Assembly (NCBI GenBank): GCA_022771625.1
Contig: JALFCW010000058.1
Span: forward strand, 1-48,496
DNA length: 48,496 bases
Source: Prevotella sp.
GTDB taxonomy: Bacteria; Bacteroidota; Bacteroidia; Bacteroidales; Bacteroidaceae
Direction of reading: 5' to 3'
This document shows, piece by piece, positions 8,195 to 31,704 of this stretch. A program made the translations under genes and the position numbers. The notes under the pieces are model-generated. The model did no database searches, was not told the DNA's origin, and saw only the letters and a list, made by a program, of their open reading frames with translations. How positions within the stretch are numbered: position 1 is the stretch's first letter; the number at the start of each line of letters is the position of its first letter.

Positions 8195-8339
8195 TGTGCA
8201 TTTTTACTGCATAAAACTGATTATTTTGATTATAGGTATAAAAAAAGAGTCATAACATTTGGTGGTTTGTTTTCTTTTTACTAATTTTGCAGATAGATTT
8301 ATAATAATCCGTATATGCCTACAAATAAGAACGCTCAAT
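8195..8339. repeat. 145-bp promoter-region repeat, left copy
   Basis: This stretch holds the promoter of the WYL-led operon, its leader and the first eight codons of the WYL gene. A nearly identical copy (about three differences, one of them in an A-run) lies at 37477-37622, where it leads into dispersed repeat R3 instead of a WYL gene. The right copy therefore looks like the stump of a second, deleted copy of the operon's front end. Confidence 0.9.
8258..8289 (+). promoter_or_regulatory. Promoter of the composite defence operon
   Basis: TTTG at 8258-8261 and TAATTTTG at 8282-8289 are separated by exactly 20 bases, a textbook Bacteroidetes -33/-7 pair. The ATG of the WYL gene is 25 bases beyond the -7 element, so the leader is very short. 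WYL regulators of defence operons usually repress their own promoter, so this site is the likely control point, although I did not identify a clear inverted-repeat operator. Confidence 0.7.
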
Positions 8340-9346
8340 TGAGATATAAGATACTTGACCGCTGTTTCAGCGACTTCTCCCGAAAGTATGAGATTGACGA
8401 CCTCTTGCAGATTGTCAATGAGGTGCTTTATGATGTGGATGGCAGTATGGTCAGCATTCGTCAGATACGCGATGACATCAGGAACATGCGTGACCGAATG
8501 ACCTATAATGCCCCAATCAAAGCATACCAGTATGATGGCAAGAAATGCTACTATCGTTATTCTGAGCCAGACTTCACCATATTCAATAATGAACTTTCGG
8601 CAGAGGAAGTGGCTTCACTGCGTTCCACAATCGACTTGCTCAGCCGTTTTCGTGGAGTGCCGAGCAATGCGTGGCTGGAGGACGTAATATCCAATCTCGA
8701 AATACGTTTCGGAGTGCGACCAAATACCGAGAACATAGTGTCTTTTGATAGTAATGACCTTTTGAAGGGAACTGAGTTTTTGGGTGAGCTAATAGATGCA
8801 GCAATAAACCATCAGCCGTTGAATGTAGAATATCGCACATTTGCCGGAAACGAGCGGACCACTATTATTCATCCCTATCATATTAAGCAGTTCAACAATC
8901 GTTGGTTTATCATAGGACTGCAAGAAGGTAGCCATGGAAACTATATCACCAATAAGGCACTCGACCGCATAGTGAAGATATCACGAGCCAATGTACCTTT
9001 CATCCCGAATACCAATATTGACTTCAACGAATATTTCAAGGACATAATTGGTGTCACCTTACCAGAAGACCATCCCGAGCTAGAAGAAGTACTGTTGAAG
9101 TTTGATGATGCTCGCTTCCCCTACGTTGTCAACAAACCTATTCATCCCTCACAGGAGACGGCAGATGACAAGGAGCATATCATCAGGCTGAGAGTCCGTC
9201 CCAACAAGGAACTCGAAGCAAGGATATTCTCTTATGGAAATCAAGTGGAAGTGCTAAAACCAGAGTGGTTGAGGCGGCAAATAGCGGAAAAATTAGGAGA
9301 GATATTGAAAAAGTATTCATCTGTGCAGGAAGACTGCAACATATAA
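8315..9346 (+). CDS. WYL-domain transcriptional regulator
   Basis: This is a 343-residue regulator. The N-terminal part (about residues 1-75) is consistent with a winged helix. The WYL domain lies at about 165-215, with the conserved HPYHIKQFNNRWFIIGL segment. A C-terminal beta-rich WCX-like part follows and ends in a LRRQIAEKLGEILKKY helix. WYL proteins of this kind (BrxR/CapW class) sense a ligand, often nucleic acid or nucleotide, and repress phage-defence operons until infection. It is the first gene after the promoter at 8258-8289 and is followed 19 bases later by a methyltransferase-like gene, so it probably controls the whole operon. Confidence 0.85.
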   Translation: MPTNKNAQLRYKILDRCFSDFSRKYEIDDLLQIVNEVLYDVDGSMVSIRQIRDDIRNMRDRMTYNAPIKAYQYDGKKCYYRYSEPDFTIFNNELSAEEVASLRSTIDLLSRFRGVPSNAWLEDVISNLEIRFGVRPNTENIVSFDSNDLLKGTEFLGELIDAAINHQPLNVEYRTFAGNERTTIIHPYHIKQFNNRWFIIGLQEGSHGNYITNKALDRIVKISRANVPFIPNTNIDFNEYFKDIIGVTLPEDHPELEEVLLKFDDARFPYVVNKPIHPSQETADDKEHIIRLRVRPNKELEARIFSYGNQVEVLKPEWLRRQIAEKLGEILKKYSSVQEDCNI

Positions 9347-9365
9347 CTGTAAATTAGCACGCGAA

Positions 9366-10499
9366 ATGATGAAAAGAGAAGCAGACATAAGTGAGAACCA
9401 ACTCCTCGTCAGCTATGGAGAGAAGGTTTGTATGAATCTCCTCAAAGACCATACCACCCAGCAGAATATCTATTGGGCCACCGACTCTTATGCCGACTTG
9501 GGAGAGGAGTTCACTTTCTTTGCTCCCATAACGCTCGACAAGATTACATCATATATATCAGATGAAGGTGTTGTGGCGACTAAAGAGCAATACGATGCCA
9601 TCATCAAACAAACGCCAGAAGCAAGACTCTGCTATCAGGAGATGATACGCCCACGTGCTGTCAAGTCGAAACAGGAACAGACACAGCGTGCCAAAGACAA
9701 GGCCGAGGTGTTTACTCCTGCATGGATATGCAACGCCCAAAACAACCTCATCGACGAGGCGTGGTTTGGCAGGAAGGAAGGGCTCTTCAATGCCCCTGAT
9801 CCCAACGACCCTCACAAGTGGATAAACAACGAAGAGAAGATACTCTTCCCCGAGGGCAAGACATGGCAGGACTATGTGGCCGACATGCGCCTGGAGATTA
9901 CCTGTGGCGAGGCGCCTTATCTTTGCAACAGATATGATGCTGTCACTGGAGAGTATAATCAGGATGTAAAGTATCGTATAGGAATGCTCGATCGCAAGCT
10001 GCGTATTGTATCTGAAAACACCAAGGACTCTAAGGAATGGATTCTTTGGGCAAAAGTGGCATTAAGGTCAACCTACGGATTTGAATGGCAGGGCGACAAC
10101 CTTCTCCTTGCCCGTGAAGCCCTCTTCTTCACCTTTGAGGAACACTACATCGCCCAGTTCGGGGAAAAGAAGTTCAATCAGAACAAGATGCGCATGATGC
10201 CGGGAGCCGCCTATATTATTTCGTGGAATGTGTGGCAGATGGATGGACTTACATACGGACTTCCAGGTTATCAGCCGTTCGTTGAAGAGAAAAGAGACAA
10301 ATACGTGCAATTATCCCTTTTCTCCGGCGATACTAAAGAAGAGAAACGAAAGCCTTCGCCCCACGAACGGTTCTGTCTGATAAAGGACTTTCTCGATGGG
10401 GTGAACATTCACAAGGCGACGCTCTGCTCTAAGGATTTCCATGACCAAAGTGCCCCGAAACAGACTTTCGAGTCAATAGTAAACAAAACTCAACAATAA
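9366..10499 (+). CDS. Methyltransferase-like restriction-modification subunit
   Basis: This 377-residue protein has the look of an N6-adenine methyltransferase module but not all of its motifs. KAEVFTPAWICN (about residues 118-129) matches the motif X region (K-x-x-x-FTP), RLEITCGEAPYL matches motif I, and GDNLLLAREALFFTF resembles the downstream Asn-Leu-x-x-Ala-Arg segment of Eco57I-type enzymes. I find no NPPY or DPPY catalytic motif IV. The next gene, 17 bases downstream, does contain NPPY. The pair may therefore form one enzyme from two chains, or this may be a non-catalytic partner. Substrate and sequence specificity are unknown. Confidence 0.7.
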   Translation: MMKREADISENQLLVSYGEKVCMNLLKDHTTQQNIYWATDSYADLGEEFTFFAPITLDKITSYISDEGVVATKEQYDAIIKQTPEARLCYQEMIRPRAVKSKQEQTQRAKDKAEVFTPAWICNAQNNLIDEAWFGRKEGLFNAPDPNDPHKWINNEEKILFPEGKTWQDYVADMRLEITCGEAPYLCNRYDAVTGEYNQDVKYRIGMLDRKLRIVSENTKDSKEWILWAKVALRSTYGFEWQGDNLLLAREALFFTFEEHYIAQFGEKKFNQNKMRMMPGAAYIISWNVWQMDGLTYGLPGYQPFVEEKRDKYVQLSLFSGDTKEEKRKPSPHERFCLIKDFLDGVNIHKATLCSKDFHDQSAPKQTFESIVNKTQQ

Positions 10500-10516: not shown

Positions 10517-13500
10517 ATGGACAATACATTCAACACATTAGAAGAGATACAGACGGCATTTGGCCAATCTGCTTCTGACGACGGGCGGATAACGCTTCGA
10601 GTGGAACAACGGAAAGCCATCGACAATGCCAAAGCCCAGTTCTGCAAGCGTAGTGGCAGTAAGGCTTCCGGCTATCAATGGACTGTGCAGCCGAAATATG
10701 CTCAGTATCTGTGGAATGCCAAGATGCGCTTCGGCAAGACACTGTGTGCCTTGCAGCTTGCAAGGGAGATGGATGTAAAGCGTACCCTCATCGTCACCCA
10801 TCGACCTGTGGTTAGTGAGAGTTGGGGAACTGACTTTAAAAACGTTGTGACCGACAGAATAACAGGCAATGACAATCAAAGGGACAAATGGGACTTCGGT
10901 ACGCTCTTTGATGATGAGCAGCACGACAAGCGGAAGTACTACGACTTGGAGAAGTTTGCCAATCGGAGCAACGACAACCACTATGTTTTCTTCGTGTCGA
11001 TGCAATATCTCCGGCTCTCGGAGCTTGTCAACATCAAGACACAGGTCAAGAACAAGGACAAGCATGATGACTCAAGTGGTCATAATCCGGCAAAGGAGAA
11101 TGAGAAGCTGAAGGCAGACATCCTCAACACCGACTGGGACTTGGTGGTTATCGACGAGGCACACGAGGGAACACGCACTGCCCTTGGCAAGCGCGTTATT
11201 GATGAGTTTCTGAAGAAGGAAAAGACAAAGATGCTCCACCTCTCCGGCACTCCTTTCAACCTGTATGAAGACTTCGAGGAAAAAGAAATCTTCACCTGGG
11301 ACTATGTCTCTGAGCAACAGGCAAAGCTTGAATGGGGCATTCAGCATCCCGATGAGCCCAACCCATACGCCGAACTGCCGCAGATGAAGATTTTCACCTA
11401 CGACATTACCCGCAACATCCAGAATGTAGTAGATCATGACGGAATATTCACCTTCAACGAGTTTCTGCGCACATGGACTGGCAACCCCAAGGCCGACAAT
11501 GCCCAAATGCCGGAAGGAGCCAAGGGACGTTTTGTGCATGAGGAGGAAGTGAAGCAGTTTCTCCAACTACTCTGCACCAAGGACGACACAAATAATTTTC
11601 CGTTCTCTACCAATGACTATCGTCGTATGTTCCGCCACACGCTTTGGGTGGTGACTCATGTTGACGAGGCTGCTGCCCTGACGCAGCTCTTGCGTGAGCA
11701 TCCCGTATTCAAGCGTTTCGACATTGTCAACGTGGCAGGCAAGGGCGACATTGACGAGCAGAGCGACAATGCCCTCGATGCAGTGAACAAGGCTATTGGT
11801 AGCATGCCCGAGAAGACCAGCACTATTACCATCTCATGTGGCCGTCTGACAACAGGAGTTACCGTGCGCCCATGGTCGGCTGTGCTCTACCTAAAGGGAG
11901 GCGACAGTGCTGCCACCTATATGCAGACCATCTTCCGAGTGCAGTCGCCCTACAAGACTGCCGACGGCAAGATGAAGACCACCTGCTATGTGTTTGACTT
12001 TGCGCCCGACCGCACACTGAAGATTGTGGCAGAGACAGCTAAGTTCTCTTCCATGGCAAAGGCCAAGGAGAAGAAGGATGCTGAAGGCGAGGAAGAGAAG
12101 ACACAGGAGATGCGCGACAAGGAGACAGTGCGCGACTTTATAGAGCTGTGCCCCGTGCTTTCGATGGAGGGAGGAAAGATGAGTCCGATGGACGTCAATG
12201 CCATCTACAAGCAACTTGAGAATGTGTTCATCGACCGTCTGGTGCGCAAGGGCTTCGATGATCCTTGTCTCTACAACCAAGACGAGCTCAACAAGATAGA
12301 CAAGGACATTGTCAACCACATAGGCGAGAACGGCGGTCAGGCTCCCGACGAGAAACGCAAGGATGCCAAGAAGGTTATCGATCTCAGCCACATGAGCGAG
12401 GAAGAGCGAGCCGAATATGAGGAGAGCATCCGCCGCAAGAAAGCTGAGGCTGCCGAACGTGCGAAGAAGAAGGCACAGAAGGACGAGCAGTTTAAGAAGC
12501 AATGGGAGGAATGGACTGAGGAGCAGCGTGAGGAATGGTTGCGGAAAGAGGCTGAACGACTTGCTCGCAACGAGCAGCTGAAGAAGGCTCGTGAGGAGTT
12601 CAAAGCCCGAATGACCAACATCCGAGGCATTGCCCTGCGCATACCGCTGCTGATGTATGGTGGTGCTGATGCGGGCGACCCGAAGGACGACCTCACTGTT
12701 GATAACTTCACCCGAAAGATTAAGGACGAGTCGTGGGCGGAGTTCATGCCCAAGGGCATATCGAAGGAAGACTTCAACAAGATACGCAAGTGTTTCAATG
12801 CCACTCGCTTTGAGGAGGCTGGCAAGAAATACCGTGCCCTCACCCGTGAGGCAGACTTTATGCATGTAGATGACCGCATTCGTCAGATAGCGGAGATATT
12901 CTCTTACTTCCGCAATCCCGACAAGGAAACAGTACTTACCCCATGGCGTGTGGTGAATATGCACATGAGCGATACTATTGGCGGCTGGTGCTGGTATGAC
13001 GAGACCTTCGACGAGAAGACTGGTCAGCTCGACACTCCACGCCTTGTTGACCAGGGCGACGTTACCCGTCAGCTCTTCGACAATGTTGACCTTGCAGGTG
13101 AGGTGCAGACGAAGATACTGGAGATTAATTCCAAGACCGGTCTCTATCCTTTATATGTTACCTATTCGCTCTACCGCCGTCGCCTTGAGGAATATATCAA
13201 GGCAAAGTGCATCGACCCTGCCACCATCAGTGTGCTGGAGGAGCAAGTGGTGTGGGACGACATCGTGCGCGACAACATGTATGTCATCTGCAACACCCCA
13301 ATGGCTGTGGGTATCACTCGCCGCACGCTCTTCGGCTTCCGTAACGTTGACCGAAAGGCAAATATCAAGAACGAACAATTAATAACTCGCGCTTCCTCCG
13401 ACCAAGAGGCTCTTGTCAATGACCTCAAGTCTGTCGGATTCTGGAAGGACAATAAAAGCAAACAAATGATAAAGTTTAATGCAGTGGTGGGGAATCCGCC

Positions 13501-14476
13501 GTATCAGATGGGAATAAACAAAGAACCTGCATATCATTATTTTATCGATTTAGGTCGATATATTAGTGCAATTGGAACTACAATCCATCCAGCGAGATTC
13601 TTGTTCAATGCAGGGAAAACACCTACAGAATGGAATGAAAAAATGCTTCATGATGAACATTATACAGTAATAAAGTACTGGAGTAATCCTGAAGAAGTTT
13701 TTGAAAATGTAGAAATTAAGGGCGGTGTTGCTATTACAATGTGGAATGAGGGTTATTCTTATGGTGAAATCGGATCTTTTATGAAATATCCTGAAATATC
13801 GCAGATTAAAGAAAAGGTAATGGGTGAACAATTTGTTTCTTTTGCAGATTTAGTTTATCCCCGTGATTTATATCGTTTGACAGAAACACTATATAAAGAA
13901 AACGAGTGGGCAAAAGAAAGACCAAGTAAGGGGCACAAGTTTGATTTAGGAACAAATGCATTTGACTTATTTCCAGAGCTATTTTCTACAAATGCTCAAA
14001 ATGTAGAATATGCAGCAATTATAGGTCGAATTAATAACGAACGTATACAAAAGTATATCAAGAAATCATATATTAGAATACCTGATAACTTTGAATATTA
14101 TAAAGTTTTTGTTGCTAAAGCAAACGGAAATGGAAAGTTAGGAGAAGAGTTATCCTCTCCATTTGTTGCCAAACCTAATGAAGGTTCAACAACAACATTC
14201 CTTAGCATAGGAAAGTTTGATACAGAAAAAGAAGCAACCTCTTGTCTCAAATATATAAAAACTAAGTTTGCCCGTTTAATGCTTGGCATTCTAAAAGTAA
14301 CACAAGATAATCCTAGAGATGTCTGGAAATTCGTCCCCCTCCAGGACTTCACCTCCACCTCCGACATCGACTGGAGTCAGAGCATTTCTGACATCGACCG
14401 CCAGTTATACGCCAAGTATGGCTTGTCGGACGAAGAGATAGCCTTCATAGAGAAGATGATCAAGCCGATGGAGTGA
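10517..14476 (+). CDS. SF2 helicase fused to Eco57I-type DNA methyltransferase
   Basis: This 1319-residue protein resembles single-chain restriction-modification enzymes. The N-terminal half is a superfamily 2 helicase: motif I MRFGKT (residues 70-75) and DEAH (213-216), followed by a SGTPFNLYEDF motif III region. A long charged helix spans about residues 625-698. A methyltransferase region follows, with motif I-like ILEINSKTGLYPLY (from residue 867) and motif IV NPPY (993-996), typical of N6-adenine methylation. The C-terminal part from about 1000 to 1270 should be the DNA target-recognition region. That stretch is much AT-richer than the rest of the gene (20 G/C in the 60 bases from 13741 against 34 in the 60 bases from 12541), suggesting a swapped specificity module. 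A separate nuclease is probably needed; the next gene encodes an HNH protein. Confidence 0.8.
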   Translation: MDNTFNTLEEIQTAFGQSASDDGRITLRVEQRKAIDNAKAQFCKRSGSKASGYQWTVQPKYAQYLWNAKMRFGKTLCALQLAREMDVKRTLIVTHRPVVSESWGTDFKNVVTDRITGNDNQRDKWDFGTLFDDEQHDKRKYYDLEKFANRSNDNHYVFFVSMQYLRLSELVNIKTQVKNKDKHDDSSGHNPAKENEKLKADILNTDWDLVVIDEAHEGTRTALGKRVIDEFLKKEKTKMLHLSGTPFNLYEDFEEKEIFTWDYVSEQQAKLEWGIQHPDEPNPYAELPQMKIFTYDITRNIQNVVDHDGIFTFNEFLRTWTGNPKADNAQMPEGAKGRFVHEEEVKQFLQLLCTKDDTNNFPFSTNDYRRMFRHTLWVVTHVDEAAALTQLLREHPVFKRFDIVNVAGKGDIDEQSDNALDAVNKAIGSMPEKTSTITISCGRLTTGVTVRPWSAVLYLKGGDSAATYMQTIFRVQSPYKTADGKMKTTCYVFDFAPDRTLKIVAETAKFSSMAKAKEKKDAEGEEEKTQEMRDKETVRDFIELCPVLSMEGGKMSPMDVNAIYKQLENVFIDRLVRKGFDDPCLYNQDELNKIDKDIVNHIGENGGQAPDEKRKDAKKVIDLSHMSEEERAEYEESIRRKKAEAAERAKKKAQKDEQFKKQWEEWTEEQREEWLRKEAERLARNEQLKKAREEFKARMTNIRGIALRIPLLMYGGADAGDPKDDLTVDNFTRKIKDESWAEFMPKGISKEDFNKIRKCFNATRFEEAGKKYRALTREADFMHVDDRIRQIAEIFSYFRNPDKETVLTPWRVVNMHMSDTIGGWCWYDETFDEKTGQLDTPRLVDQGDVTRQLFDNVDLAGEVQTKILEINSKTGLYPLYVTYSLYRRRLEEYIKAKCIDPATISVLEEQVVWDDIVRDNMYVICNTPMAVGITRRTLFGFRNVDRKANIKNEQLITRASSDQEALVNDLKSVGFWKDNKSKQMIKFNAVVGNPPYQMGINKEPAYHYFIDLGRYISAIGTTIHPARFLFNAGKTPTEWNEKMLHDEHYTVIKYWSNPEEVFENVEIKGGVAITMWNEGYSYGEIGSFMKYPEISQIKEKVMGEQFVSFADLVYPRDLYRLTETLYKENEWAKERPSKGHKFDLGTNAFDLFPELFSTNAQNVEYAAIIGRINNERIQKYIKKSYIRIPDNFEYYKVFVAKANGNGKLGEELSSPFVAKPNEGSTTTFLSIGKFDTEKEATSCLKYIKTKFARLMLGILKVTQDNPRDVWKFVPLQDFTSTSDIDWSQSISDIDRQLYAKYGLSDEEIAFIEKMIKPME

Positions 14477-14550: not shown

Positions 14551-14590
14551 GGGTCACAGGGACAGGCACCTCTGATTCGCAAGAATGATA
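14551..14590. repeat. Dispersed repeat R1 (copy 2 of 3)
   Basis: The core GGGACAGGCACCTCTGATTC differs at one base from copies at 6031-6069 and 37624-37657. It lies in the 133-base gap between the helicase-methyltransferase and HNH genes, the widest gap inside the operon. A CGTAAGAATGAC motif just upstream (14529-14540) echoes the repeat's tail. The gap may mark a joint where gene modules were fused. Confidence 0.8.
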
Positions 14591-14609: not shown

Positions 14610-15377
14610 ATGGCAAAGAAACAGACATTAGTGACAGCAGAAATGCTTCGGGAAGCATATATAGCCAACCTTGAAGCAAAGCGCAAGACAAATGCGGTGG
14701 CAATAGCCGACTTCACCGAGAGGGAGTTGGCAGATTTCATACGCCAATATGCTGACTTTCGATTTAAGAGCGTCTTTGAGGAGCTGGATCACAACTACTA
14801 TGACCGGGTGCGTGAGAAGATTGCCACCAATGGCGAGATGCGAACAGCTGACAAGGAAGCTGACAATATGTATTCTTTCCATCTGAAACAATGGACGAGC
14901 TTCTTGGAGTCGAAAGCATTCAAGGAACTGTTCAAGAAGAAGAGGTCTTCGGACGACAAGCCTAAGGCAACAGTCACGGCAGAGCCAGCAAAGCTTTTGG
15001 CTTCGCCTTTCAGAGAAGAGACTGAGGGTGAGCGCAAGCACATTGTAAAGGAGACGGAGGTGGTGCGCCGCAACCCCCAGTTGCGCCAGCAGTGCATTGA
15101 GAGGTATGGCTACCAGTGTCAGTGTTGTGGCATGAACTTCGCGGAACTTTATGGTGAGGAACTTGGTGCCAACTTCATTGAGGTGCATCATCTTAAGCCA
15201 ATTTCGACATACGAGGAGGATGGAATACCTGAGAACTTTCTGGAAAATCTCGTGCCGCTATGCAGCAATTGTCACTCGATGATACACCATATTAAGGATT
15301 CCGAGCATCCGCTACGTGATCTTCGTGAGGCTTATCGAGGGATCAAACAAGAAATATCCAAATGGAAAGAAGACTGA
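14610..15377 (+). CDS. HNH endonuclease
   Basis: This 255-residue protein has an unrecognised, charged helical N-terminal half (about 1-140) and a C-terminal HNH nuclease. The HNH part shows two cysteine pairs that would hold a structural zinc (C170/C173 and C218/C221) around EVHHLKP (HH at 193-194) and a CHSMIHH end. The layout is that of HNH proteins linked to restriction. Its stop overlaps the start of the next gene by 16 bases, indicating translational coupling. It could be the cleaving subunit for the methyltransferase-helicase pair, or an equivalent of the ZorE nuclease of type II Zorya, but ZorE similarity outside the HNH motif was not seen. Confidence 0.8.
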   Translation: MAKKQTLVTAEMLREAYIANLEAKRKTNAVAIADFTERELADFIRQYADFRFKSVFEELDHNYYDRVREKIATNGEMRTADKEADNMYSFHLKQWTSFLESKAFKELFKKKRSSDDKPKATVTAEPAKLLASPFREETEGERKHIVKETEVVRRNPQLRQQCIERYGYQCQCCGMNFAELYGEELGANFIEVHHLKPISTYEEDGIPENFLENLVPLCSNCHSMIHHIKDSEHPLRDLREAYRGIKQEISKWKED

Positions 15378-17914
15378 AAGACAAAATTGAACAACTCGAC
15401 ATCAGTCAGCCATACGTATGGCGGCTGCGACTGTCAGAAACCGACTTCACTGCGCTCGAAGCCGAGTTGAATGTTGTCGCCAGAAGTCAAGATTGCCAAG
15501 CATTGGCAAGCGAGGAGAATGCTAAGGCTACTGTTGTCTATATGGCTGAATGGTATAAACGAAGGTATCAGAGAGGTAATAAATGCGACCTCGTGGATGG
15601 TCTCGACCTTGAAACCCTATGGACGAACGCTGGTATCAGCAAGAAACGCTACCTGTATAGAGACGATAACGGCAACAAGCGTTGGCTCTACTCCATCTAT
15701 GTGTTGGGAGGTTTGGCAATAAAACATGAACTGGGCAGGAACGACAACATGAAGTTTCTGAAAGGACTTTGCCGTATATATCATGGCGAGAACTATACGT
15801 TGGAGAATCTGGACGATGCATCGAGAGCTGTGGCATTCCGTGAGAGCATCAAGCGGCAGCACTCCCTCTACGAATACATGAAGGAGATATTAAATGGCGA
15901 ACTACCTTTCGATGCCGCTGACCTGAAGGATGAGACTTCAGACGTGAACCGCTTCGTTGCCACCATCAAAGCTGCCAATGACGAGATTTTGCGACAGAAG
16001 TTCCGTTTAGAGTGGGCTGTGACTTTCTCTCCCGACTATGGCAGTATGACCCGTAGGCTGAATATATGGTTGAAGCCAGAGGAAGTGGGCGGCGGTCTGC
16101 ATCAGTATCTGCGGTATGACAGGGTACATCTGTGGGGAGTGCCTCATCCCGAAAATCAGCAACACCTATTTATATATATAAGGTTTAAGGACGGCGACAA
16201 AGTGGTGGGACAATCATTAGATGAGCGTCCTCTTATCACTTATCTGAACCATGGCGTAAATGACTTTGTCGCCTTCGGAGTGGAAAAGGGAGTACAGATA
16301 AAACATATTCCCACATGCCGTTTCACACGGATAGAAATCATCGTGAAAGACGATGAAGGCAATGAATACTTGGCTCAGACGCTGGACACCACCGAGTGGC
16401 TGCAGCTTTGGAGGCAAGGCGGCTATGGTGACACATGGACTTCAACACGCAACGATCAGAAAGAGACTGCATTGCTCTTCTCTAACCGTTGCCGACTGAA
16501 GGACGCTGCAATGGTTGATACAGTAAGCCGCAAGCCCTTTCGTGACCAAAAGACTGGCGTGAGCGAGACATGGAACTGGATGTATATCTACGACTCCGTG
16601 ACATTCCTTGATGAGCACGGTAGGGAAATAAGTCTATATAACCGTAATGGCTATGACCAAGTGACAACCCGTCTCTACACTGACATCATATTCTATGTGT
16701 CGGGAGGCAAGGTAAAGCACCGCTATTTGGACGATCCCGACATCAGCGATGAATATTCGGAAGACGAACTTCCAGTGATATTCGGACAGAAAGACATCAT
16801 AGTGCGCCACTTCCTGACCAAGGATGATATCCGAAATGCCAGACCGGAGAGCGACATAAAGGCAGAGCAAATAGAATACAAGACAGAAAGCGGACGCTAC
16901 AAGGAATGGACAAGCATAGACGAACCTACATACGGTGAGGTGACGCTGAGAGTGACAATAAAGGGGAAACCCTATCTGCTTACAGTAGCTTACCTGCCAG
17001 GACTAAATATAGAGCAACCCATCTGGAGAGACTATGAGCATACGCTTGTATGCTATCGAGGGCTTGACAAACAGGAACTCGAGAAGCAGGACGAGATACC
17101 GATGGACGGGCAAATGCTCAATCCTACCATTACTATACAATATGGCGAAGACTCCGACCACTATATAGTAGAAGTCTACCGCCCCACACTCATTAAGGAG
17201 GTTTTGCTTGATGGCGAGATTATCCAATATTTGCGGGGAGACGAAATGTTGCATCTGCCCTATATCTTCAAGAAACACGTTATACTGAACGACTTCAGCG
17301 AGCAAGGCTATCAGTCATACGACTGTAAAGACCTTGGAAGCATTTACAGAAAAGACCTGATTGACATAGAGCATAACCCGAGTGTGGGAATGGCAGCCCT
17401 TGCAGCATGGGATGCTGATTGTAACTATGCAGGGAAACTACTTGATGCCATGGCTCCCGACAGTCTGACCGTATGCTTTGGGAGAGCTAAAGATGATGCT
17501 ATTTGGGAAGGTCAGGAAGCTCTCTTGTGGGACTACGATTGCGAGAAAGAGCCCATGGCTACCTGTCCCGACGCAATTCCTGAATTTGGAATCATATTCC
17601 AGAATCTCAGCAATGACAAGAATCTGGTATGCAACTTCCCCATACTGCAAGATGATGACCCGTGGGGATTTGATGATGTTGACTGTTCTATCGTCAAGTG
17701 CTTCGAGGTGGCCAATGAGACAGAAACCTATTTCTTCCTGATGAAACCTCTGAGGGATATGAGACAGGATGAAATCATCCCTGAACTATACCGGCCTCTG
17801 CTCTGCAAGAGAGAAGGCAAACTCACTGACAAGGATAAGGAAGGGCTTGTTCGTCTGGGCGAAGAATTTGGTTTTGACTGGCAAGCACACAAGATAAGTT
17901 TTGATAACGATTAA
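15362..17914 (+). CDS. DruH-like (STY4851/ECs_5259-type) protein
   Basis: This is an 850-residue protein with no enzymatic motif that I recognise. An N-terminal YMAEWYKRRY segment (about residues 59-68) recalls the AEWWRRRY-type motif of the STY4851/ECs_5259 family, which as DruH accompanies the DruE helicase in type III Druantia. This similarity is from memory and was not aligned. The rest is rich in beta-strand-like alternation and acidic residues. The start ATG lies inside the end of the HNH gene (16-base overlap), and the helicase gene begins 13 bases after its stop. The position immediately upstream of a DruE-type helicase supports the reading. Its biochemical role is unknown. Confidence 0.55.
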   Translation: MERRLKDKIEQLDISQPYVWRLRLSETDFTALEAELNVVARSQDCQALASEENAKATVVYMAEWYKRRYQRGNKCDLVDGLDLETLWTNAGISKKRYLYRDDNGNKRWLYSIYVLGGLAIKHELGRNDNMKFLKGLCRIYHGENYTLENLDDASRAVAFRESIKRQHSLYEYMKEILNGELPFDAADLKDETSDVNRFVATIKAANDEILRQKFRLEWAVTFSPDYGSMTRRLNIWLKPEEVGGGLHQYLRYDRVHLWGVPHPENQQHLFIYIRFKDGDKVVGQSLDERPLITYLNHGVNDFVAFGVEKGVQIKHIPTCRFTRIEIIVKDDEGNEYLAQTLDTTEWLQLWRQGGYGDTWTSTRNDQKETALLFSNRCRLKDAAMVDTVSRKPFRDQKTGVSETWNWMYIYDSVTFLDEHGREISLYNRNGYDQVTTRLYTDIIFYVSGGKVKHRYLDDPDISDEYSEDELPVIFGQKDIIVRHFLTKDDIRNARPESDIKAEQIEYKTESGRYKEWTSIDEPTYGEVTLRVTIKGKPYLLTVAYLPGLNIEQPIWRDYEHTLVCYRGLDKQELEKQDEIPMDGQMLNPTITIQYGEDSDHYIVEVYRPTLIKEVLLDGEIIQYLRGDEMLHLPYIFKKHVILNDFSEQGYQSYDCKDLGSIYRKDLIDIEHNPSVGMAALAAWDADCNYAGKLLDAMAPDSLTVCFGRAKDDAIWEGQEALLWDYDCEKEPMATCPDAIPEFGIIFQNLSNDKNLVCNFPILQDDDPWGFDDVDCSIVKCFEVANETETYFFLMKPLRDMRQDEIIPELYRPLLCKREGKLTDKDKEGLVRLGEEFGFDWQAHKISFDND

Positions 17915-17927
17915 TGACAATAAATAT

Positions 17928-24339: not shown

Positions 24340-24375
24340 GCAAATAACAATAATCAATAAACAATAAGAATACAT

Positions 24376-25935
24376 ATGAATGATTTATTACTGAATTGGT
24401 GGAATTTTGTCGTGTTAGTTATCGGATTAATAGCAACATTCTGGTGTAAGAATAAATATAACGACACAAAATCAAAGCCATTGTTAACGTGCCTTCCAGG
24501 AGTATGGACATCCCTCGGTCTTCTTGGAACTTTTTGTGCAATTTGTCTTTCCTTACATGGATTAGATGCTAATTCTGAAATTGTTGACAATACGGGTAAA
24601 ACCTTAGCCGAAGTTAAGGCAGCAAGTAGTCAAGATCTTGATATAATGAAGATTATCAGCGAGCTTATTCCTGCTTTTACAACATCTATCATAGGTCTTA
24701 TTGGAGCACTCTTAGTTACTATATGGACAAAACTAAAGTTTGCGAATGAAGAAGTTGAAGAAAATAGTAAACTATCAAACACCACACCTGAAGAGTACAT
24801 TCGGGATATAGCAATCTATTCAAAGGAGATGACATCTAACAAGACCCTCCTGAACAAACACAATGAGCTGCTAACAGAATTGATTTATCTTCATAAGGAG
24901 GAAGAAAAGAAGAATAGAGAATACAACGATAAGCTCAACGACAATATTAGTCATCAGAGCGAGATTCTTAAAGAATTCATTGACGGCTTTGTTAAGCGTA
25001 TGGATGACATCTTCAAACAAATGCATGGTGCTATCCAGCAGCAAGTACAGAACTTTGGAGAAGAGCAATTTAGCAAGACCAGTGAGTTGCTTACTTCTAT
25101 TACTGAGCGTTTGAGTGCTGTTTCTACCGACATTATCGACAATCAGCGTAAATCTGTTGAGACGATGATGAATAACACGAATTTTGAAATAGGTAACATT
25201 ACGTCCTCAGTTACAAGGGTTCTTGGAGATTTGACATCTAATGTTCAAGAATCTCTTGCAACACTTAATACGCAACAATCAGAGCGTCTAAATGAGATTA
25301 TATCAAACTACGATACTCTTGCCACTAAACTGTCAGAGCAGAACACTGACTTTGCGACAAAGGTAACAGAACAGATGCATACAGAATATTCTAAGGTACA
25401 GGAGCATAACGTACAGAGCCTTCAGCAGATGGTTGAACTTAGAAATGCATATCAGGAAGTTACTTCTGATGTGCTTACGAGCACTCTCAATATGAATGAG
25501 AAAGCTACAGCAGACTTGAGAGAGTCGATGTCAGGATTTGTAACAAATATCCAGACCTTGATAGCTACACAATGTTCTGCTCTTAGTACTTCGATTTCTA
25601 CAAATGTGGAATCACTCAATAAAGCATACCAGTTTATTGAAAGTCTTGTGGCTGAGATACGTCAGAACTATGATCAGGCTGTTCTCGCTTATGGTGATGC
25701 TGTAAATATTGCTCATAGAATAAACGAGTCTTCAGAGAAGGCTATCGCAGCAAACAACAAGAGTTTACAGGCAGTTGAAGAAACTAACGATAGAATTTCG
25801 TCTGTTCTCGACTTACTTATGAAGCGTCAGGAAAACATTGAACAACTTACAAAACAGATTAGTTCTGTAAGTGGTGCTATCGTTGAATTGCAGAAATTGG
25901 AATTAATGCTTAACAAGATAACAAGTAACAGATGA
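24376..25935 (+). CDS. ZorA-like MotA/ExbB-family motor subunit
   Basis: This 519-residue protein has three predicted membrane helices, at about 10-26, 42-64 and 96-117. The second lies in a PGVWTSLGLLGTF context and the third in IPAFTTSIIGLIGALL, both characteristic of MotA/TolQ/ExbB channels and of ZorA. The remaining 380 residues form a long helical, coiled-coil-like cytoplasmic tail, as known for ZorA. In Zorya the ZorA5-ZorB2 complex is a proton-driven rotary motor in the inner membrane that senses phage invasion and signals along the tail. The stop overlaps the next start by four bases (ATGA), coupling it to the ZorB-like gene. The gene is clearly AT-richer than the upstream helicase. 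Confidence 0.85.
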   Translation: MNDLLLNWWNFVVLVIGLIATFWCKNKYNDTKSKPLLTCLPGVWTSLGLLGTFCAICLSLHGLDANSEIVDNTGKTLAEVKAASSQDLDIMKIISELIPAFTTSIIGLIGALLVTIWTKLKFANEEVEENSKLSNTTPEEYIRDIAIYSKEMTSNKTLLNKHNELLTELIYLHKEEEKKNREYNDKLNDNISHQSEILKEFIDGFVKRMDDIFKQMHGAIQQQVQNFGEEQFSKTSELLTSITERLSAVSTDIIDNQRKSVETMMNNTNFEIGNITSSVTRVLGDLTSNVQESLATLNTQQSERLNEIISNYDTLATKLSEQNTDFATKVTEQMHTEYSKVQEHNVQSLQQMVELRNAYQEVTSDVLTSTLNMNEKATADLRESMSGFVTNIQTLIATQCSALSTSISTNVESLNKAYQFIESLVAEIRQNYDQAVLAYGDAVNIAHRINESSEKAIAANNKSLQAVEETNDRISSVLDLLMKRQENIEQLTKQISSVSGAIVELQKLELMLNKITSNR

Positions 25936-26633
25936 GTAGAATTTCATTCCGTGATAACGGAGAAGAACATAATTTCTGGCAAAACTACACTGATTTGATG
26001 TCAGGCTTCCTCATAGTGTTTATCATTACGAGTCTCGTCGCGTATGGTAGCTATAAGGTTTATGTTGATTTGTACCACAATAAAGGTATTACTGAGAATA
26101 ACATTAATGATATTGTAGTAAATGCCGAACTATACAAAAAAATTAGGGAGTTTCAAGAGGCCCAGAAATCCATTAGTCGTAAATATTTCAAGTATAACGA
26201 TAAATACCAGCGATTTGAGTGTACTGTTGATGTTATGTTTGCACCTGAGAGCCCTGTAATTCCGCAATCATGTTATTCTCAATTGGAAGAGGCTGGAAAG
26301 GAGATTGAAGAAATCATTGACAAGTTTAAAGAATCTGCCAATGTATCTTTCAAGGTTGTAATAGAAGGTCGTGCAGCACGTTCTCATAATAATCCTAACC
26401 CAAACATGGATCAGAAAGCTTACGCAGCCAGACTAAGTTATGAACGTGCTCGTAACCTTCATCTATTCTGGAAAAATAAAGGTTTATTACAGAATATTGA
26501 GAAACAGAATGGAGAAGTCTTCATATCTGGCTCTGGATTTGAGGGCAAAGGAAGGTATACTGGTTTTGGACCAAATGGAGAGGACAAAAATAAAACTTTT
26601 ATTATTCAAATTATTCCATACATAACCTACTGA
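25932..26633 (+). CDS. ZorB-like OmpA/MotB-family motor subunit
   Basis: This 233-residue protein has a short cytoplasmic N-terminus, one membrane helix (about 23-45) with a conserved aspartate at its start (D21 in FWQNYTDLMSGF), and a periplasmic OmpA-like peptidoglycan-binding domain (about 120-230, with a VIEGRA segment and YERARNL). This matches MotB and in particular ZorB, where the aspartate carries protons through the ZorA channel. It is translationally coupled to the ZorA-like gene and followed after seven bases by the GHKL-DUF3883 gene. With ZorA it should form the envelope-spanning sensor motor of the system. Confidence 0.85.
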   Translation: MSRISFRDNGEEHNFWQNYTDLMSGFLIVFIITSLVAYGSYKVYVDLYHNKGITENNINDIVVNAELYKKIREFQEAQKSISRKYFKYNDKYQRFECTVDVMFAPESPVIPQSCYSQLEEAGKEIEEIIDKFKESANVSFKVVIEGRAARSHNNPNPNMDQKAYAARLSYERARNLHLFWKNKGLLQNIEKQNGEVFISGSGFEGKGRYTGFGPNGEDKNKTFIIQIIPYITY

Positions 26634-26640
26634 TAACATT

Positions 26641-29600
26641 ATGAATGTACGAGATTTAAGTCAATATATAACAAAACTCTGCGGTCAGGAAACATTACAT
26701 CTTCTTGGCTCCAATAAAGAACTATTACTTCAAAAGATTTATGGTCAGGATCCTTCTCCTGATCAGGTAAAGTCTGTTATCTCTGATGCTGCCAGCTTTG
26801 CAAGTAATGCAGAAGAGCAGTTGTTTTATGAGTTTGTGCAGAATGCGTATGATGCAAGTGCAGACTCACTATTCTTCTATGCAAACAAGAATTATCTAAT
26901 TGTACTGAACAATGGTGAACCTTTCTATACGGATTTTGATATATTTGATTCTGGAACAATTCCACGTGACGGTCAGCTATATAACTTCCTGGCAAAAGGA
27001 AAGTCTTTGAAACGCACAGACAATAGTAAGCTTGGTAAGTATGGTCAGGGTTCCAAATTGCTTTATACGCTCCTTACAGAAGTAAGTGAAAGTGAAGAGA
27101 ACGAAGACCTTTTGATAAAGACTCTTTATGATGAGAAGAAAGGACCTTATCTAATCTCTTGGTATAATAGAAATCAACTGGCTAACCTTTTGCAGAAACA
27201 AGGTGTATGGACACCAGCACAAGGTGACGACTATAAAGAGAATATTCTTTTTGCAAAGATAATGATGAGCTACTATCCTGTAGCTCCAGGCACATCAGAA
27301 GACATCTTCTCTACAAAAGAAGCTTTGGATGCAATCGAAGCATTTGATACTCTCGTTGATCCGAGACGTAACCTCCACTTCCTCTATAGAGGTACTGCGT
27401 TGATAATACCTCTTGGTGAAGGTAAATATGAAAGAATAACCTCAGAAATCAACTTAGAGCGTGTAAGAACTCGCCTTGGAGGTTTTGCTTCCATCACCAA
27501 AGACCAGGAACGTAATGAAGGAAAGACTGTTGACCACATTTATGTCATGGGCGAAGAGGTTGAACAGCATGAGGTTCAATCTGTATTTGTTGACTTCAAG
27601 GTAGAAGGCAAACCGTTCTATTATCACTTTGCGTTCAATCCAGTTTTTGCTGAAAAGAATTTTGTGAATTTGTTCAAGGGTCTTCCTATTCTTGAAACGA
27701 AACTCCGACTTGGATTCATCATTGATAGCCAAAAGTTTGATGTTGATAGTAGCCGACAGCGAATAAGTGATAAAGACAAGACAAAAGGACAGTTAGTCAG
27801 AGCCTTTTCAGAGCTTGTCACTGTTCTTCGAGGCTTAAAGAATACAAACCCTAAGAAGTTTGACTATATTTACAAGTCAATAGCAGCCACAAAATACCAA
27901 GAAGGAGAAGACTTCAAATTCATAAAAGAAGCCTTCCAGGAGGTTTTTGTCCCATTCTTTGAAGAATTTGTACTTACATCTACTGGTGAATATGAGAAGA
28001 AAGAGAATGTACGATCATTTGAAGAGGACTATCAAGTACCTTTGAAAGAAATTGGAATCAACAAATACAAATGGATTGACAGCTCTATAAAGAAAGACCT
28101 TCACCGCCATAAGGTAGATGTTGATTCAATCGATTTCTCTACACTACTCTCTGATGCTGACTCTACAAAGTTGATAACATGGATAAAGTCATTATCCGCA
28201 AAGGAATACAACGATTTTGCAAAGGTTAGCGACAGCCATAAGAATGAATCTGGAGTCCTAAATAACAAGATATTCCGTAGTAACAAAGGAAATATCTATA
28301 GTTACAACGAACTGAAAAGTACAGCAAACATCTACTATCCATTCGAGGATGGCATGAAGTTTGGCGAATGCGAGCATATTAACGAGACTCTTTCTGATAT
28401 TGATGAGAATACATATCTTGCAATATTGTTTGAAAAGATCAAAGCTAATATTGAGACATTTAGACTAACTGATTCATCAAAAGACGATGCTGCTAACCTG
28501 TTGGCATGGATTGCTGCAAAGAACGAGTATTATGGTACGCGTATTAAGACAGAAATATGCCTTTTACAAAACTGGCATAATAGTTATCTGTCTTTTGACA
28601 ATCTCATGATCGAACGACCAAAAGATACCATACTATTTGACAATTATACAGTTAAAGGCTATATTCCAGAGGCTGTGAAGTCAAATAATTGGCTAATAAA
28701 TCCGGCAAAAGCAAAAAAAACTTGCTGGCAATGGGTCGTTTCTCATTGGCAGAACATCCAAGACAATGAAGAATGGGGTGACAATACACATGCCTATATA
28801 GCCGACATAAAGAAAGTTTATAAGGCAGTAGGTGTTGATGCCCAGGGAAATGTAGATAATACGAAGTTGACTCTCTATCTGGATGACGAAGGAAAGCCGA
28901 CTGATCAGTTGCGTACTATTGTAAATAATGTATCGAAGCTTACAGAGGAAGAATATAACTATCTTGATGAAAAGGTTTTGCATCTGCGATTGTTGCCTTA
29001 TGAGTATTACAAAGAACTCATGGAGGCTCCTTTCTGTGTTGAGACAGTTCAATCATCTAACATCGTAAATGAATCGTTATCAGCAGACGAGAAGCTTTTG
29101 CGCATCTTTATAAAAATAACGGATGCATACCTGCAATTCTATAGAACACAAGAAATATCAGGTAGATACGTTATTACTAAAACTTCAAGTGGCTATAACT
29201 ACATAGATACAGTATCGGCAGATTTGCAGTCAGAACTTCTTGCTGCTAACTTCTATCGTATTCCCGATAAAGTGCAGGAGATACTAAGAACAGAGAGCGG
29301 AAAATACAAATTCGCTTCAAACGAAACTATGCTCATAAGAGCCATAGAGCGAATAAATAATCCGATTAAGCTCCTTCCATTTGCAAAACAGGCGAATGTT
29401 AATGTTGTAAACTCTTTCTTCAACAATCTTAAGACTATTAATGTAGATAGCAAGATAACAAAGGAAGATTTGAGATGGCAGGTCATGGAATTTGCTGTTC
29501 AGCGTAATACTGATGACAATGAGTACATTGATACAGTATTTGGACTTATCCGACACAAGAACACGGAACTTCCAGAATCCATAACTCAACAATATGTAAA

Positions 29601-31704
29601 AGTTGGTGAAAATGAATACGATGTATATGTCCTTAATAGTAATTATAAAGATGATAATCAAACAATAGATTCTTTCCTCAAATGTCTTCCTTCACAAAAT
29701 GAGATTGATTACTTCAAGGAGCATTATTATGAGGGAAAAGAAGATGAGGTTCCTACAGATGTTCTTTATGATGAATTAAAAAAGCATTATCTGTCTATCG
29801 AGCAATTAAAGTTCTGTATAGATTACGCTTTAACAAACAATGACGATTGTGATGATCTTGAAATAACTGAGGACGAAAGCCTTACCAAAGCTCTTGATAT
29901 GATCTTGGAAAACAACTTTGTTGGTTTTGACAAACATTTCAAGATGGAAGGTGTGGATTTTGTAAACCAGGTTTATGCAAAGCATGACATACTCCTCCAA
30001 AGTGAGTACTTGCCAGATTCTCTTCATAAATGGATTGACAAGAATCCAAGCTCTTTGATGTTGTTCACTCAACTTTCAACTTATTCGAATCCGTACATCG
30101 CTGTTCGTCAAGCACTTCTCGACAATACGACATACTCTGATGTCACTTGTTTCTCCGATATAGACCATAAGGAAGCCATTGATTATGCAATAAACTGGGC
30201 TATAGAGAAAAAACTCACCTATGCATACCAATCAGAAAGATATAATACGATGATGGCAATTATTGAGAAATTACCATCCGATTATGGTGTTATGCCGTTC
30301 CTTAGATATACAGGAAAGGTTGTTCCTATAGAAAATTCATGTGACCCCCCAAAACCATTATTCATGTTGGAAAGATACCAGGAAGGTGCTTCGTTCCTTT
30401 CTTGGTATTCATGGGCTGGTACACAATTCCAAGAACGACTTAATAGAAGTTCAAAACTGGCAAAATTCATAAAAGACAATATTGTTTATATATACGGCGA
30501 TAAAGAATTATTGTTCAATCATGGATTCAAAAAGAATCCACGCTGGAATGTTCAAGCCTCTGTTGATATTAAGGATTTCCCTGAACATGATGATCCTGTA
30601 TATAAGAATTGGAAGAAGTCTGATGAGTCAGGAGGTATAACTATACATACTTCTGATAAACCAATAATCATGAATTTCAATATCATGGCTTCTAATTACA
30701 GTATCTTTGCAGACAAGTTACATGATAGTGAGTTCGGTTATGAACCTGGTAAACGAGTCGTTGTGCAGCAACCAAATAAAGATGGTTTGAGCTTAATGAA
30801 GACCATTGCAAAGCATATTGCAAGCATGGACTTCTTTAAGGAACCTTTTATTGCTCTACAGTCTTTATACGTTGATCAATGGGAACTTTTGCAACAGGGA
30901 GTAATTGGTAATGGAGATGGAACAGGTGACAACGAAGGTGCTGGAAAATCTAATATTGATCTCTCAAACAGCCCTCTCACTGAAGAACAAGCTCAAGAGG
31001 CAATCAATAAAATCTCTGCAGAGACTGCGGAAAACATAGAGCAAGTCAACAATATCACTAAACAGATGAATGGTGAAGAACTGAACAAGCTAAATGAGGT
31101 TGCAGAACCTATCAAGGAATTGATTGAAGGCTTGGAAAAGGAAGATATTGAACGACTCGCTGAGAAGAAAGACAAGTTGATGCAGATGATGGATGGTCTT
31201 TCAGAAGCAGAGGAAGAAGAGAAAGAATCTCAGGTGCGTCAAACAATAGGATTCATTGGAGAACTTATATATAGCCATTATCTTGAAAACAAGAAGCTGG
31301 TCAAAGATATTGATTTCATTCATGCAGCACTTGATGGTATCGGTGAGTATGATTTTGAAATAAAATCAGAGAAGATGTTTGTTGATGTAAAGACAACACT
31401 ATATAGCTTGAAAGATGGTACTGCTCCCTTCTATTTGCATCGCTCACAAAATGTTTTCATGCAGAAACATCCTAATTCAAAATATCATATTGTACGTATA
31501 TCATTAATAGATTTAGACTTAAAGAAATCGTATGAAGAGTTGCGTGACACATATGGTAAGGATGCTAACCCTATGGAGAATACACACCTAAAAAAACGAT
31601 GTGAAGCTTTGGCAAAAAAATATTGGCGAGGAGCAAATATTGAGGAGTTTGATGCATTATCTCCTGAATATGCGATAAGAATAGAACAAAAGATTAACAA
31701 TTAG
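26641..31704 (+). CDS. Giant GHKL ATPase with C-terminal DUF3883 nuclease-like domain
   Basis: This 1687-residue protein has a GHKL (Hsp90/sacsin-like) ATPase at the N-terminus: N-box EFVQNAYDASAD (about 64-75), a G1-like NNGEPF (90-95) and G2 GKYGQGSKL (132-140). The middle of about 1100 residues is unrecognised and helical. A glutamate-rich coiled-coil segment spans about 1450-1535. The C-terminus is DUF3883-like: a GELIYSHYLE helix, then YDFEI near 1570 and DVKTT at 1582-1586, the D...D-x-K layout of PD-(D/E)XK nucleases. It follows the ZorB-like gene by seven bases and occupies the position of the Zorya effector genes. I infer that the motor's signal reaches this protein. Such ATPase-DUF3883 proteins are known from defence islands, but their chemistry is not established. 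Confidence 0.75.
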   Translation: MNVRDLSQYITKLCGQETLHLLGSNKELLLQKIYGQDPSPDQVKSVISDAASFASNAEEQLFYEFVQNAYDASADSLFFYANKNYLIVLNNGEPFYTDFDIFDSGTIPRDGQLYNFLAKGKSLKRTDNSKLGKYGQGSKLLYTLLTEVSESEENEDLLIKTLYDEKKGPYLISWYNRNQLANLLQKQGVWTPAQGDDYKENILFAKIMMSYYPVAPGTSEDIFSTKEALDAIEAFDTLVDPRRNLHFLYRGTALIIPLGEGKYERITSEINLERVRTRLGGFASITKDQERNEGKTVDHIYVMGEEVEQHEVQSVFVDFKVEGKPFYYHFAFNPVFAEKNFVNLFKGLPILETKLRLGFIIDSQKFDVDSSRQRISDKDKTKGQLVRAFSELVTVLRGLKNTNPKKFDYIYKSIAATKYQEGEDFKFIKEAFQEVFVPFFEEFVLTSTGEYEKKENVRSFEEDYQVPLKEIGINKYKWIDSSIKKDLHRHKVDVDSIDFSTLLSDADSTKLITWIKSLSAKEYNDFAKVSDSHKNESGVLNNKIFRSNKGNIYSYNELKSTANIYYPFEDGMKFGECEHINETLSDIDENTYLAILFEKIKANIETFRLTDSSKDDAANLLAWIAAKNEYYGTRIKTEICLLQNWHNSYLSFDNLMIERPKDTILFDNYTVKGYIPEAVKSNNWLINPAKAKKTCWQWVVSHWQNIQDNEEWGDNTHAYIADIKKVYKAVGVDAQGNVDNTKLTLYLDDEGKPTDQLRTIVNNVSKLTEEEYNYLDEKVLHLRLLPYEYYKELMEAPFCVETVQSSNIVNESLSADEKLLRIFIKITDAYLQFYRTQEISGRYVITKTSSGYNYIDTVSADLQSELLAANFYRIPDKVQEILRTESGKYKFASNETMLIRAIERINNPIKLLPFAKQANVNVVNSFFNNLKTINVDSKITKEDLRWQVMEFAVQRNTDDNEYIDTVFGLIRHKNTELPESITQQYVKVGENEYDVYVLNSNYKDDNQTIDSFLKCLPSQNEIDYFKEHYYEGKEDEVPTDVLYDELKKHYLSIEQLKFCIDYALTNNDDCDDLEITEDESLTKALDMILENNFVGFDKHFKMEGVDFVNQVYAKHDILLQSEYLPDSLHKWIDKNPSSLMLFTQLSTYSNPYIAVRQALLDNTTYSDVTCFSDIDHKEAIDYAINWAIEKKLTYAYQSERYNTMMAIIEKLPSDYGVMPFLRYTGKVVPIENSCDPPKPLFMLERYQEGASFLSWYSWAGTQFQERLNRSSKLAKFIKDNIVYIYGDKELLFNHGFKKNPRWNVQASVDIKDFPEHDDPVYKNWKKSDESGGITIHTSDKPIIMNFNIMASNYSIFADKLHDSEFGYEPGKRVVVQQPNKDGLSLMKTIAKHIASMDFFKEPFIALQSLYVDQWELLQQGVIGNGDGTGDNEGAGKSNIDLSNSPLTEEQAQEAINKISAETAENIEQVNNITKQMNGEELNKLNEVAEPIKELIEGLEKEDIERLAEKKDKLMQMMDGLSEAEEEEKESQVRQTIGFIGELIYSHYLENKKLVKDIDFIHAALDGIGEYDFEIKSEKMFVDVKTTLYSLKDGTAPFYLHRSQNVFMQKHPNSKYHIVRISLIDLDLKKSYEELRDTYGKDANPMENTHLKKRCEALAKKYWRGANIEEFDALSPEYAIRIEQKINN

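What the first reader, a model, noticed from the sequence alone, without database searches (positions are those of the whole stretch)
8258..31704. Composite defence operon joining restriction-modification, Druantia-like and Zorya-like parts under one WYL-controlled promoter
Nine genes in one direction follow a single clear promoter: WYL regulator, methyltransferase-like subunit, helicase-methyltransferase, HNH nuclease, DruH-like protein, DruE-type DUF1998 helicase, ZorA-like, ZorB-like, and a giant GHKL-DUF3883 protein. Most gaps are under 20 bases or are overlaps; the two wider gaps (133 and 61 bases) hold a dispersed repeat and a perfect inverted repeat. Zorya and Druantia are known as separate systems that can co-occur in islands. 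Here their parts are arranged as one transcription unit together with modification genes. I know of no described system with this gene order, although I could not search.
Basis: partly seen in the sequence, partly recalled or inferred. Interest (0 to 1): 0.95.

Follow-up and report, generated by a model that had tools for sequence, protein, structure and literature searches.

The report
Phage-defence stack with Zorya-Tiamat hybrid
A bacterial genome carries three predicted phage-defence units, each found without the others in relatives, packed head to tail behind one predicted promoter, and the last of them is a four-gene unit, not found described in the papers searched, that likely couples a flagellum-motor-like membrane sensor to a giant predicted DNA-cutting ATPase and a helicase.

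Summary
The nine genes, spacings, repeats and promoter-like site are as described, but relatives show three modules rather than one system: (1) a methyltransferase-like plus helicase-methyltransferase pair, found without Dru or Zor genes in 15 of 15 fetched stretches; (2) a Druantia III-like DruH-DruE pair with WYL regulator, which in one other genus has the same pair and an HNH gene in front; (3) ZorA-ZorB-TmtA-SNF2 helicase. In 14 of 14 loci found with the giant protein, ZorA-ZorB lie directly upstream; in 8 of 8 long enough, the SNF2 helicase follows; none has a full DruE. DNA similarity to a Prevotella relative starts 7 bases before zorA. The giant protein matches Tiamat TmtA over its length (650 bits) and ends in conserved PD-(D/E)xK-type residues. 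The novelty is a Zorya-like unit with Tiamat and SNF2 as accessory genes: a new variant of a known kind. The Druantia-Zorya junction may be chance, or selected, since such systems synergise elsewhere (PMC13192584); two contig-length coincidences hint at recurrence without showing it.

The parts
8259..8289 (+). Bacteroidales-type promoter-like site TTGG-N19-TAATTTTG before the operon
   Evidence: sequence and scan; consensus recalled; the same site recurs in the copy near 37565
8315..9346 (+). WYL/WCX regulator
   Evidence: Pfam WYL, WCX over cut-off; 36% and 40% relatives beside DruH-DruE in G726 and on a Chryseobacterium plasmid
9366..10499 (+). MTase-like partner subunit (MTasN), no NPPY-type motif
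   Evidence: PADLOC MTase_II 293 bits; motif scan
10517..14476 (+). ResIII helicase + Eco57I-type methyltransferase (HelMT), NPPY at residue 993
   Evidence: Pfam, motif; MTasN adjacent in 15 of 15 fetched relatives
14552..14588 (+). 37-nt island-specific dispersed repeat
14610..15377 (+). HNH nuclease
   Evidence: Pfam HNH 34.6 bits; same position in G726 (26%)
15362..17914 (+). DruH-like protein
   Evidence: position before DruE; PADLOC DruH3 11.8 bits; profile comparison with two DruH proteins E 2.4e-4, probability 43%
17901..24314 (+). DruE, Druantia type III helicase
   Evidence: PADLOC DruE3 892.9 bits, residues 9-2130
24310..24339 (.). perfect 11-bp inverted repeat at the Dru/Zor junction
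24376..25935 (+). ZorA-like motor subunit, three TM-like peaks and long cytoplasmic coiled tail
   Evidence: PADLOC ZorA1 44 bits; family profile hits PDB ZorA 8qyk best, E 5.5e-7; TM scan
25932..26633 (+). ZorB-like motor subunit with Asp21 at its single TM helix
   Evidence: PADLOC ZorB1 40.6 bits; Asp21 invariant in 15 of 15
26641..31704 (+). TmtA-like (Tiamat) GHKL-type ATPase with C-terminal PD-(D/E)xK-like domain
   Evidence: PADLOC TmtA 650 bits over residues 1-1647; conserved YD..(D/E)xK in 11 of 11; VIA-align rows mostly PD-(D/E)xK nucleases
31761..31791 (+). second promoter-like site TTGG-N19-TATCTTTG
31857..33350 (+). inserted Schlafen/AlbA_2 protein, absent between tmtA and SNF2 in relatives
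   Evidence: Pfam; break in DNA similarity 31712-33354; no gene there in 8 of 8 loci
33355..36189 (+). DrmD/RapA-like SNF2 helicase, fourth gene of the Zor unit
   Evidence: PADLOC DrmD 646 bits; directly after tmtA in 8 of 8 loci; start at ATG 33355

Best explanation
The region is a stack of three predicted defence modules that occur apart in relatives (a helicase-methyltransferase pair, a Druantia III-like DruH-DruE unit with WYL regulator and HNH nuclease, and a ZorA-ZorB-TmtA-SNF2 unit), probably read from one promoter but likely not one machine. The Zor unit would work like Zorya: ZorA-ZorB form a peptidoglycan-anchored ion-driven motor that senses the envelope disturbance of phage DNA entry; the ZorA tail then recruits or activates TmtA (GHKL-type ATPase) and the SNF2 translocase, and TmtA's PD-(D/E)xK-type domain cuts DNA. 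The DruH-DruE unit would act later, on replicating phage DNA, and the helicase-methyltransferase pair would mark host DNA. Shown: gene content, conserved order, portable boundaries, catalytic-type motifs. Inferred: co-transcription, sensing, recruitment, DNA cutting.
For: ZorA-ZorB directly upstream of TmtA in 14 of 14 loci; SNF2 helicase directly downstream in 8 of 8 long enough, the other six being cut within tmtA; a further tmtA end piece in G464 also has it. ZorA, TmtA and SNF2 pairwise identities rise and fall together over nine loci, window included (r 0.98 and 0.93). 22 shared longest-contig lengths between the 120 best ZorA and 120 best TmtA homologues versus 0.2 per shifted control. 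DNA similarity to Prevotella P5-50 covers 24369-31712 and 33354-36119 only. Genes upstream of the Zor unit differ: AbiE pair in L002 (same-sized pair in L006), UvrD-type helicases in L004 and L014, DNA methylase in L007, DprA-type in L012, type III RM in L003. Dru/modification unit without Zor in G726; WYL-DruH-DruE without that pair on a Chryseobacterium plasmid. MTasN-HelMT without Dru or Zor matches in 15 of 15 fetched stretches. ZorB Asp21 invariant in 15 of 15; the published ZorB ion residue is D24 (type I) or D21 (type II) (PMC11890865, passages).
Against: No promoter-like site in the 61-base Dru/Zor gap, and the Zor unit sits close behind the preceding gene in L002 (28 bases), L006 (22) and L015 (1) too, so it may be selected to join other operons. 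[quoted passage not shown] The contig-length coincidences 19190 and 47684 would, if real, mean the composite recurs. In G823, outside the order, ZorA-ZorB-TmtA lacks the helicase, so the helicase is not universal. The loci were found with patterns from relatives of this TmtA, so the ZorAB link is shown for this subfamily, not for Tiamat at large. The Zor unit is rare: TmtA in 2 of 399 family and 2 of 395 class genomes, own included. The DruH assignment is weak, and the separate Dru/modification unit rests on one intact relative.
Confidence: 0.67

Rival explanations
1. One integrated composite system: Dru, modification and Zor parts act together, with ZorAB as sensor and DruE/HNH/TmtA as shared effectors under WYL control.
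For: Tight packing and no promoter-like site at the junction. DruH-DruE with ZorE gave the full combined phenotype against phage Bas37, and the full sets were needed against T3 (PMC13192584, section). DruH/ZorA and DruH/TmtA contig-length coincidences.
Against: Zor unit without Dru in 14 of 14 loci; Dru unit without Zor in G726; DNA similarity boundary seven bases before zorA; no other listed genome with both among 399 of the family.
Confidence: 0.15
2. The Zor unit is two systems side by side: a Zorya-like ZorAB pair that has lost its partners, and a stand-alone Tiamat.
For: Tiamat is recalled as a single-gene system; a Parabacteroides plasmid has a ZorA-ZorB pair with no TmtA.
Against: ZorAB adjoin TmtA in 14 of 14 loci and in a genome of another order of the class; co-divergence.
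Confidence: 0.13
3. Decaying defence island with parts no longer expressed.
For: Promoter and RhuM relics at 37477-37631 and 38880-39018; inserted AlbA gene splits the Zor unit.
Against: All nine frames and the SNF2 gene are open; helicase, methyltransferase, HNH and GHKL-type motifs are present.
Confidence: 0.05

Closest known systems
Zorya types I-III (ZorAB + ZorCD, ZorE, or ZorFG)
   Same: ZorA/ZorB motor pair first in the operon; an SNF2 helicase as in type I (ZorD); motor Asp conserved
   Different: No ZorC, ZorF or ZorG match and no ZorE next to ZorAB; TmtA takes the third place; the helicase matches ZorD only in its helicase core (112 bits, best stretch 51-271)
Tiamat (TmtA)
   Same: Match to PADLOC TmtA model PDLC03970 over residues 1-1647, 650 bits
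   Different: Directly behind ZorA-ZorB in all 14 loci found; Tiamat is recalled as a one-gene system, and was listed in 2023 among systems of unknown mechanism (PMC10482375, passage)
Druantia type III (DruH + DruE)
   Same: DruE3 full length; a DruH-like protein directly before it
   Different: DruH very divergent and shorter (850 aa); preceded by a methyltransferase pair and HNH nuclease
E. coli Zorya II - Druantia III - ARMADA II array (PMC12458937, PMC13192584)
   Same: Zorya and Druantia III neighbours with methyltransferase and RapA-like helicase genes nearby
   Different: Different Zorya kind; Druantia first, whereas the array is named Zorya first; modification genes are an Eco57I-type pair
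DISARM (DrmD)
   Same: SNF2 gene is DrmD-like (646 bits PADLOC)
   Different: Below the NCBIfam DrmD cut-off (643 of 950 bits); no DrmB or DrmC listed for the 19 window proteins scanned (lists capped at 25 families for three of them)

Membership tests
Zorya (any type) | ZorA: MotA-like with long cytoplasmic tail | tested here: met
   PADLOC ZorA 44 bits; profile hits solved ZorA best, with apolipoproteins next through the coiled tail; three TM-like peaks
Zorya (any type) | ZorB: one TM helix with the motor Asp | tested here: met
   Asp21 in 15 of 15; one TM-like peak
Zorya (any type) | ZorB peptidoglycan-binding domain | tested here: inconclusive
   ZorB1 profile covers residues 9-205; no Pfam hit
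Zorya type I | ZorC and full-length ZorD | tested here: not met
   no ZorC listed; ZorD only in the helicase core, NCBIfam 73 of 1500 bits
Zorya type II | ZorE next to ZorAB | tested here: not met
   the only HNH gene of the nine lies 9 kb upstream, ZorE2 18 bits, mREase_IV 32 bits
Zorya type III | ZorF and ZorG | tested here: not met
   none listed
Tiamat | TmtA over full length | tested here: met
   650 bits, residues 1-1647
Tiamat | single-gene system (recalled) | tested here: not met
   ZorAB adjacent in 14 of 14
Druantia III | DruE type 3 | tested here: met
   893 bits
Druantia III | DruH | tested here: inconclusive
   11.8 bits; hhalign probability 43%; no clear structural match
DISARM | DrmD over the NCBIfam cut-off | tested here: not met
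   643 of 950 bits
DISARM | DrmA, DrmB, DrmC core genes | tested here: not met
   DrmA models match only the helicase parts of DruE and of the SNF2 gene; no DrmB or DrmC listed for 19 proteins, lists capped for three
[quoted passage not shown]
   no ARMADA hit listed from the 2023 PADLOC copy, which predates the name; DruE3 is the best match

The most novel reading that the evidence does not exclude
A naturally fused Druantia-Zorya immune operon: an early membrane motor (ZorAB) driving a Tiamat nuclease and SNF2 translocase, and a late DruH-DruE arm with its own built-in HNH partner and host-marking methylase, expressed together under one WYL switch so that each arm prepares DNA for the other.
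Probability: 0.17. Interest if true: 0.88.

Novelty: new variant of a known kind. Interest (0 to 1): 0.62.

Why it matters
Tiamat was listed in 2023 as of unknown mechanism (PMC10482375, passage). The fixed place of this TmtA subfamily behind ZorA-ZorB makes it a testable effector of a Zorya-type motor and would add a Zorya type whose accessory genes are a GHKL-type ATPase-nuclease and an SNF2 helicase. The window also offers a natural same-strand, tightly packed version of the Druantia-Zorya pairing now reported to synergise, and a Druantia III variant with an attached modification pair and HNH nuclease.
Full report
Observation. Nine co-directional ORFs are present at 8315-31704 exactly as listed, with gaps of 19, 17, 133, -16, -14, 61, -4 and 7 bases. 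A TTGG-N19-TAATTTTG site lies at 8259-8289 (the Bacteroidales consensus is recalled). The 37-nt repeat in the 133-base gap and the 11-bp perfect inverted repeat in the 61-base gap are real. A 21-base core of the repeat occurs exactly three times, all in this island, and once elsewhere with two mismatches.

Identity of the parts. PADLOC gives WYL, MTase_II (293 bits), REase_MTase_IIG (162 bits, best in the C-terminal part), HNH-type nucleases (32 bits), DruE3 (893 bits over 9-2130), ZorA (44 bits), ZorB (41 bits) and TmtA (650 bits over 1-1647); the DruH-like protein has no hit at 0.001 and only 11.8 bits to DruH3 at a looser limit. NCBIfam gives it 22 bits to the YjiT family over residues 19-73, far below the cut-off of 150; DruH is assigned to that family (PMC13192584, section). 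A profile of 23 sequences aligns to the two DruH proteins beside DruE in G344 and G361 over residues 19-234, E 2.4e-4, probability 43%. Its predicted order of helices, beta-rich middle and helices resembles the published DruH description, but no solved structure matches. I treat it as a divergent DruH, likely but not proven.

Zor unit. With an alignment of 20 TmtA relatives I scanned the genome collection, one genome for each of 84,980 species: 95 pattern matches, 14 confirmed loci, all from Bacteroidota by their titles and the look-up of one genus. In 14 of 14, a ZorA and a ZorB relative lie directly upstream; in 8 of 8 loci whose contig passes the end of tmtA, a DrmD/RapA-like SNF2 helicase follows with gaps of 2-6 bases or an overlap; in the other six tmtA is cut at or near the contig end. 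None has a DruE beyond one 37-bit partial match that is a UvrD helicase; 12 of the 14 have at least 7.7 kb before zorA. G464 adds one more tmtA-SNF2 end. In G823, outside the order, ZorA (33 bits), ZorB (123 bits) and TmtA (498 bits) stand together without the helicase. Over nine loci, window included, identities of TmtA track those of ZorA (r 0.98) and SNF2 (r 0.93). In the protein database, the 120 best ZorA and 120 best TmtA homologues share 22 longest-contig lengths, against 0.2 per shifted control. The unit is rare: 2 of 399 genomes of the family and 2 of 395 of the class have TmtA, own included.

Boundaries. DNA similarity between the window and Prevotella sp. P5-50 (L002) runs from 24369, seven bases before zorA, to 31712 at 88.5%, stops, and resumes at 33354 for the helicase at 71%. 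The stop is the AlbA_2/Schlafen gene (31857-33350), which has a promoter-like site of its own at 31761-31791. The window's helicase is nearer to L005 (83%) than to L002 (77%), whereas TmtA is nearer to L002 (95% against 82%), which suggests recombination at the insertion.

Upstream of zorA, relatives carry AbiEi-AbiEii (L002; L006 has a same-sized pair, not scanned), a T5orf172-domain gene with type III restriction genes and an HNH gene further up (L003), UvrD-type helicases (L004, and L014 one gene away), a DNA methylase on the other strand (L007), a DprA-type gene (L012) and, in L005, L009, L013 and L015, genes with no defence match. The unit therefore joins different neighbours.

Dru/modification unit. 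DruE relatives are rare: 3 of 393 genomes of the order (E 1e-60) and 4 of 399 of the family (E 1e-80), own included. In G726, another genus, the order is MTasN-HelMT-HNH-DruH-DruE-WYL at 39, 43, 26, 31, 45 and 36% identity, without Zor matches in the 38 kb read; a small XRE-type reading frame precedes MTasN there (read by eye). G416 has a relic with an MTasN piece beside DruE pieces; G560 has DruE at a contig edge. G344 and G361 have DruH and DruE without the modification pair; a Chryseobacterium plasmid has WYL-DruH-DruE, followed by a DUF2130 gene and methyltransferase and S-subunit genes of another kind. The MTasN-HelMT pair is common: 21 of 391 genomes of the order have a HelMT match (E 1e-40), and in 15 of 15 fetched stretches MTasN adjoins HelMT and no DruE, HNH or Zor match is seen; one of these is a second copy in the window's own genome (L025). 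So even the first six genes are a layered assembly, but that assembly recurs at least once at about 26-45% identity, which points to a Druantia III variant with an attached modification pair and HNH nuclease.

One system or three. Against one system: the portable boundaries and separate distributions above. For it: no promoter-like site in the junction; the reported synergy and co-location of Druantia III with Zorya II and their array with ARMADA II in E. coli (PMC12458937, passages and one section); and single contig-length coincidences DruH/ZorA (19190) and DruH/TmtA (47684), each within chance. I put 0.15-0.17 on a true composite.

Novelty. No title, abstract start or passage that I saw or 102 and the papers opened describes ZorAB with TmtA, or Druantia III with this methyltransferase pair and HNH; PADLOC 2023 names TmtA apart from Zorya. 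The claim is limited to those searches.

Noticed in passing
window 37477-37631 and 38880-39018: Relics: a 95-98% copy of the operon promoter plus the first WYL codons, joined directly to the 37-nt repeat before a Fic gene, and a 94% copy of the RhuM gene end; traces of cassette turnover.
   Followed up: partly
window 6031, 14552, 37625: 37-nt repeat lies upstream of RhuM, HNH and Fic genes; its core is exact only in this island; may be a recombination scar.
   Followed up: partly
window 9366-10499: MTasN lacks NPPY but has EVFTPAW-like and ITCGEAPYL-like stretches that resemble SAM-binding motifs (recalled); the methyltransferase may be split over two genes.
   Followed up: no
window 33020-33135: 21-nt tandem repeats inside the inserted AlbA gene, encoding about six TIQK-type heptads.
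   Followed up: no
window 37295-37458: 24-nt tandem repeats in an intergenic stretch before the promoter relic.
   Followed up: no
window 1770-5825: AlaX-like editing-domain ORF directly followed by a PLuB/MkoA-like helicase ORF, perhaps another defence pair.
   Followed up: no
window 7189-8028: Protein with a weak RelA/SpoT N-terminal match (28 bits), between RhuM and the operon.
   Followed up: no
L041 8484-10627: Parabacteroides plasmid with a ZorA-ZorB pair and no TmtA or annotated helicase next to it.
   Followed up: partly
L025 (own genome contig 34): Second MTasN-HelMT pair in the same genome, 44-48% identical.
   Followed up: partly
L013 10001-14844: tmtA in two open pieces; likely a broken copy.
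   Followed up: no
L003 23394-23894: A second, partial TmtA-like (34% over 116 residues) reading frame 8 kb behind the Zor unit.
   Followed up: no
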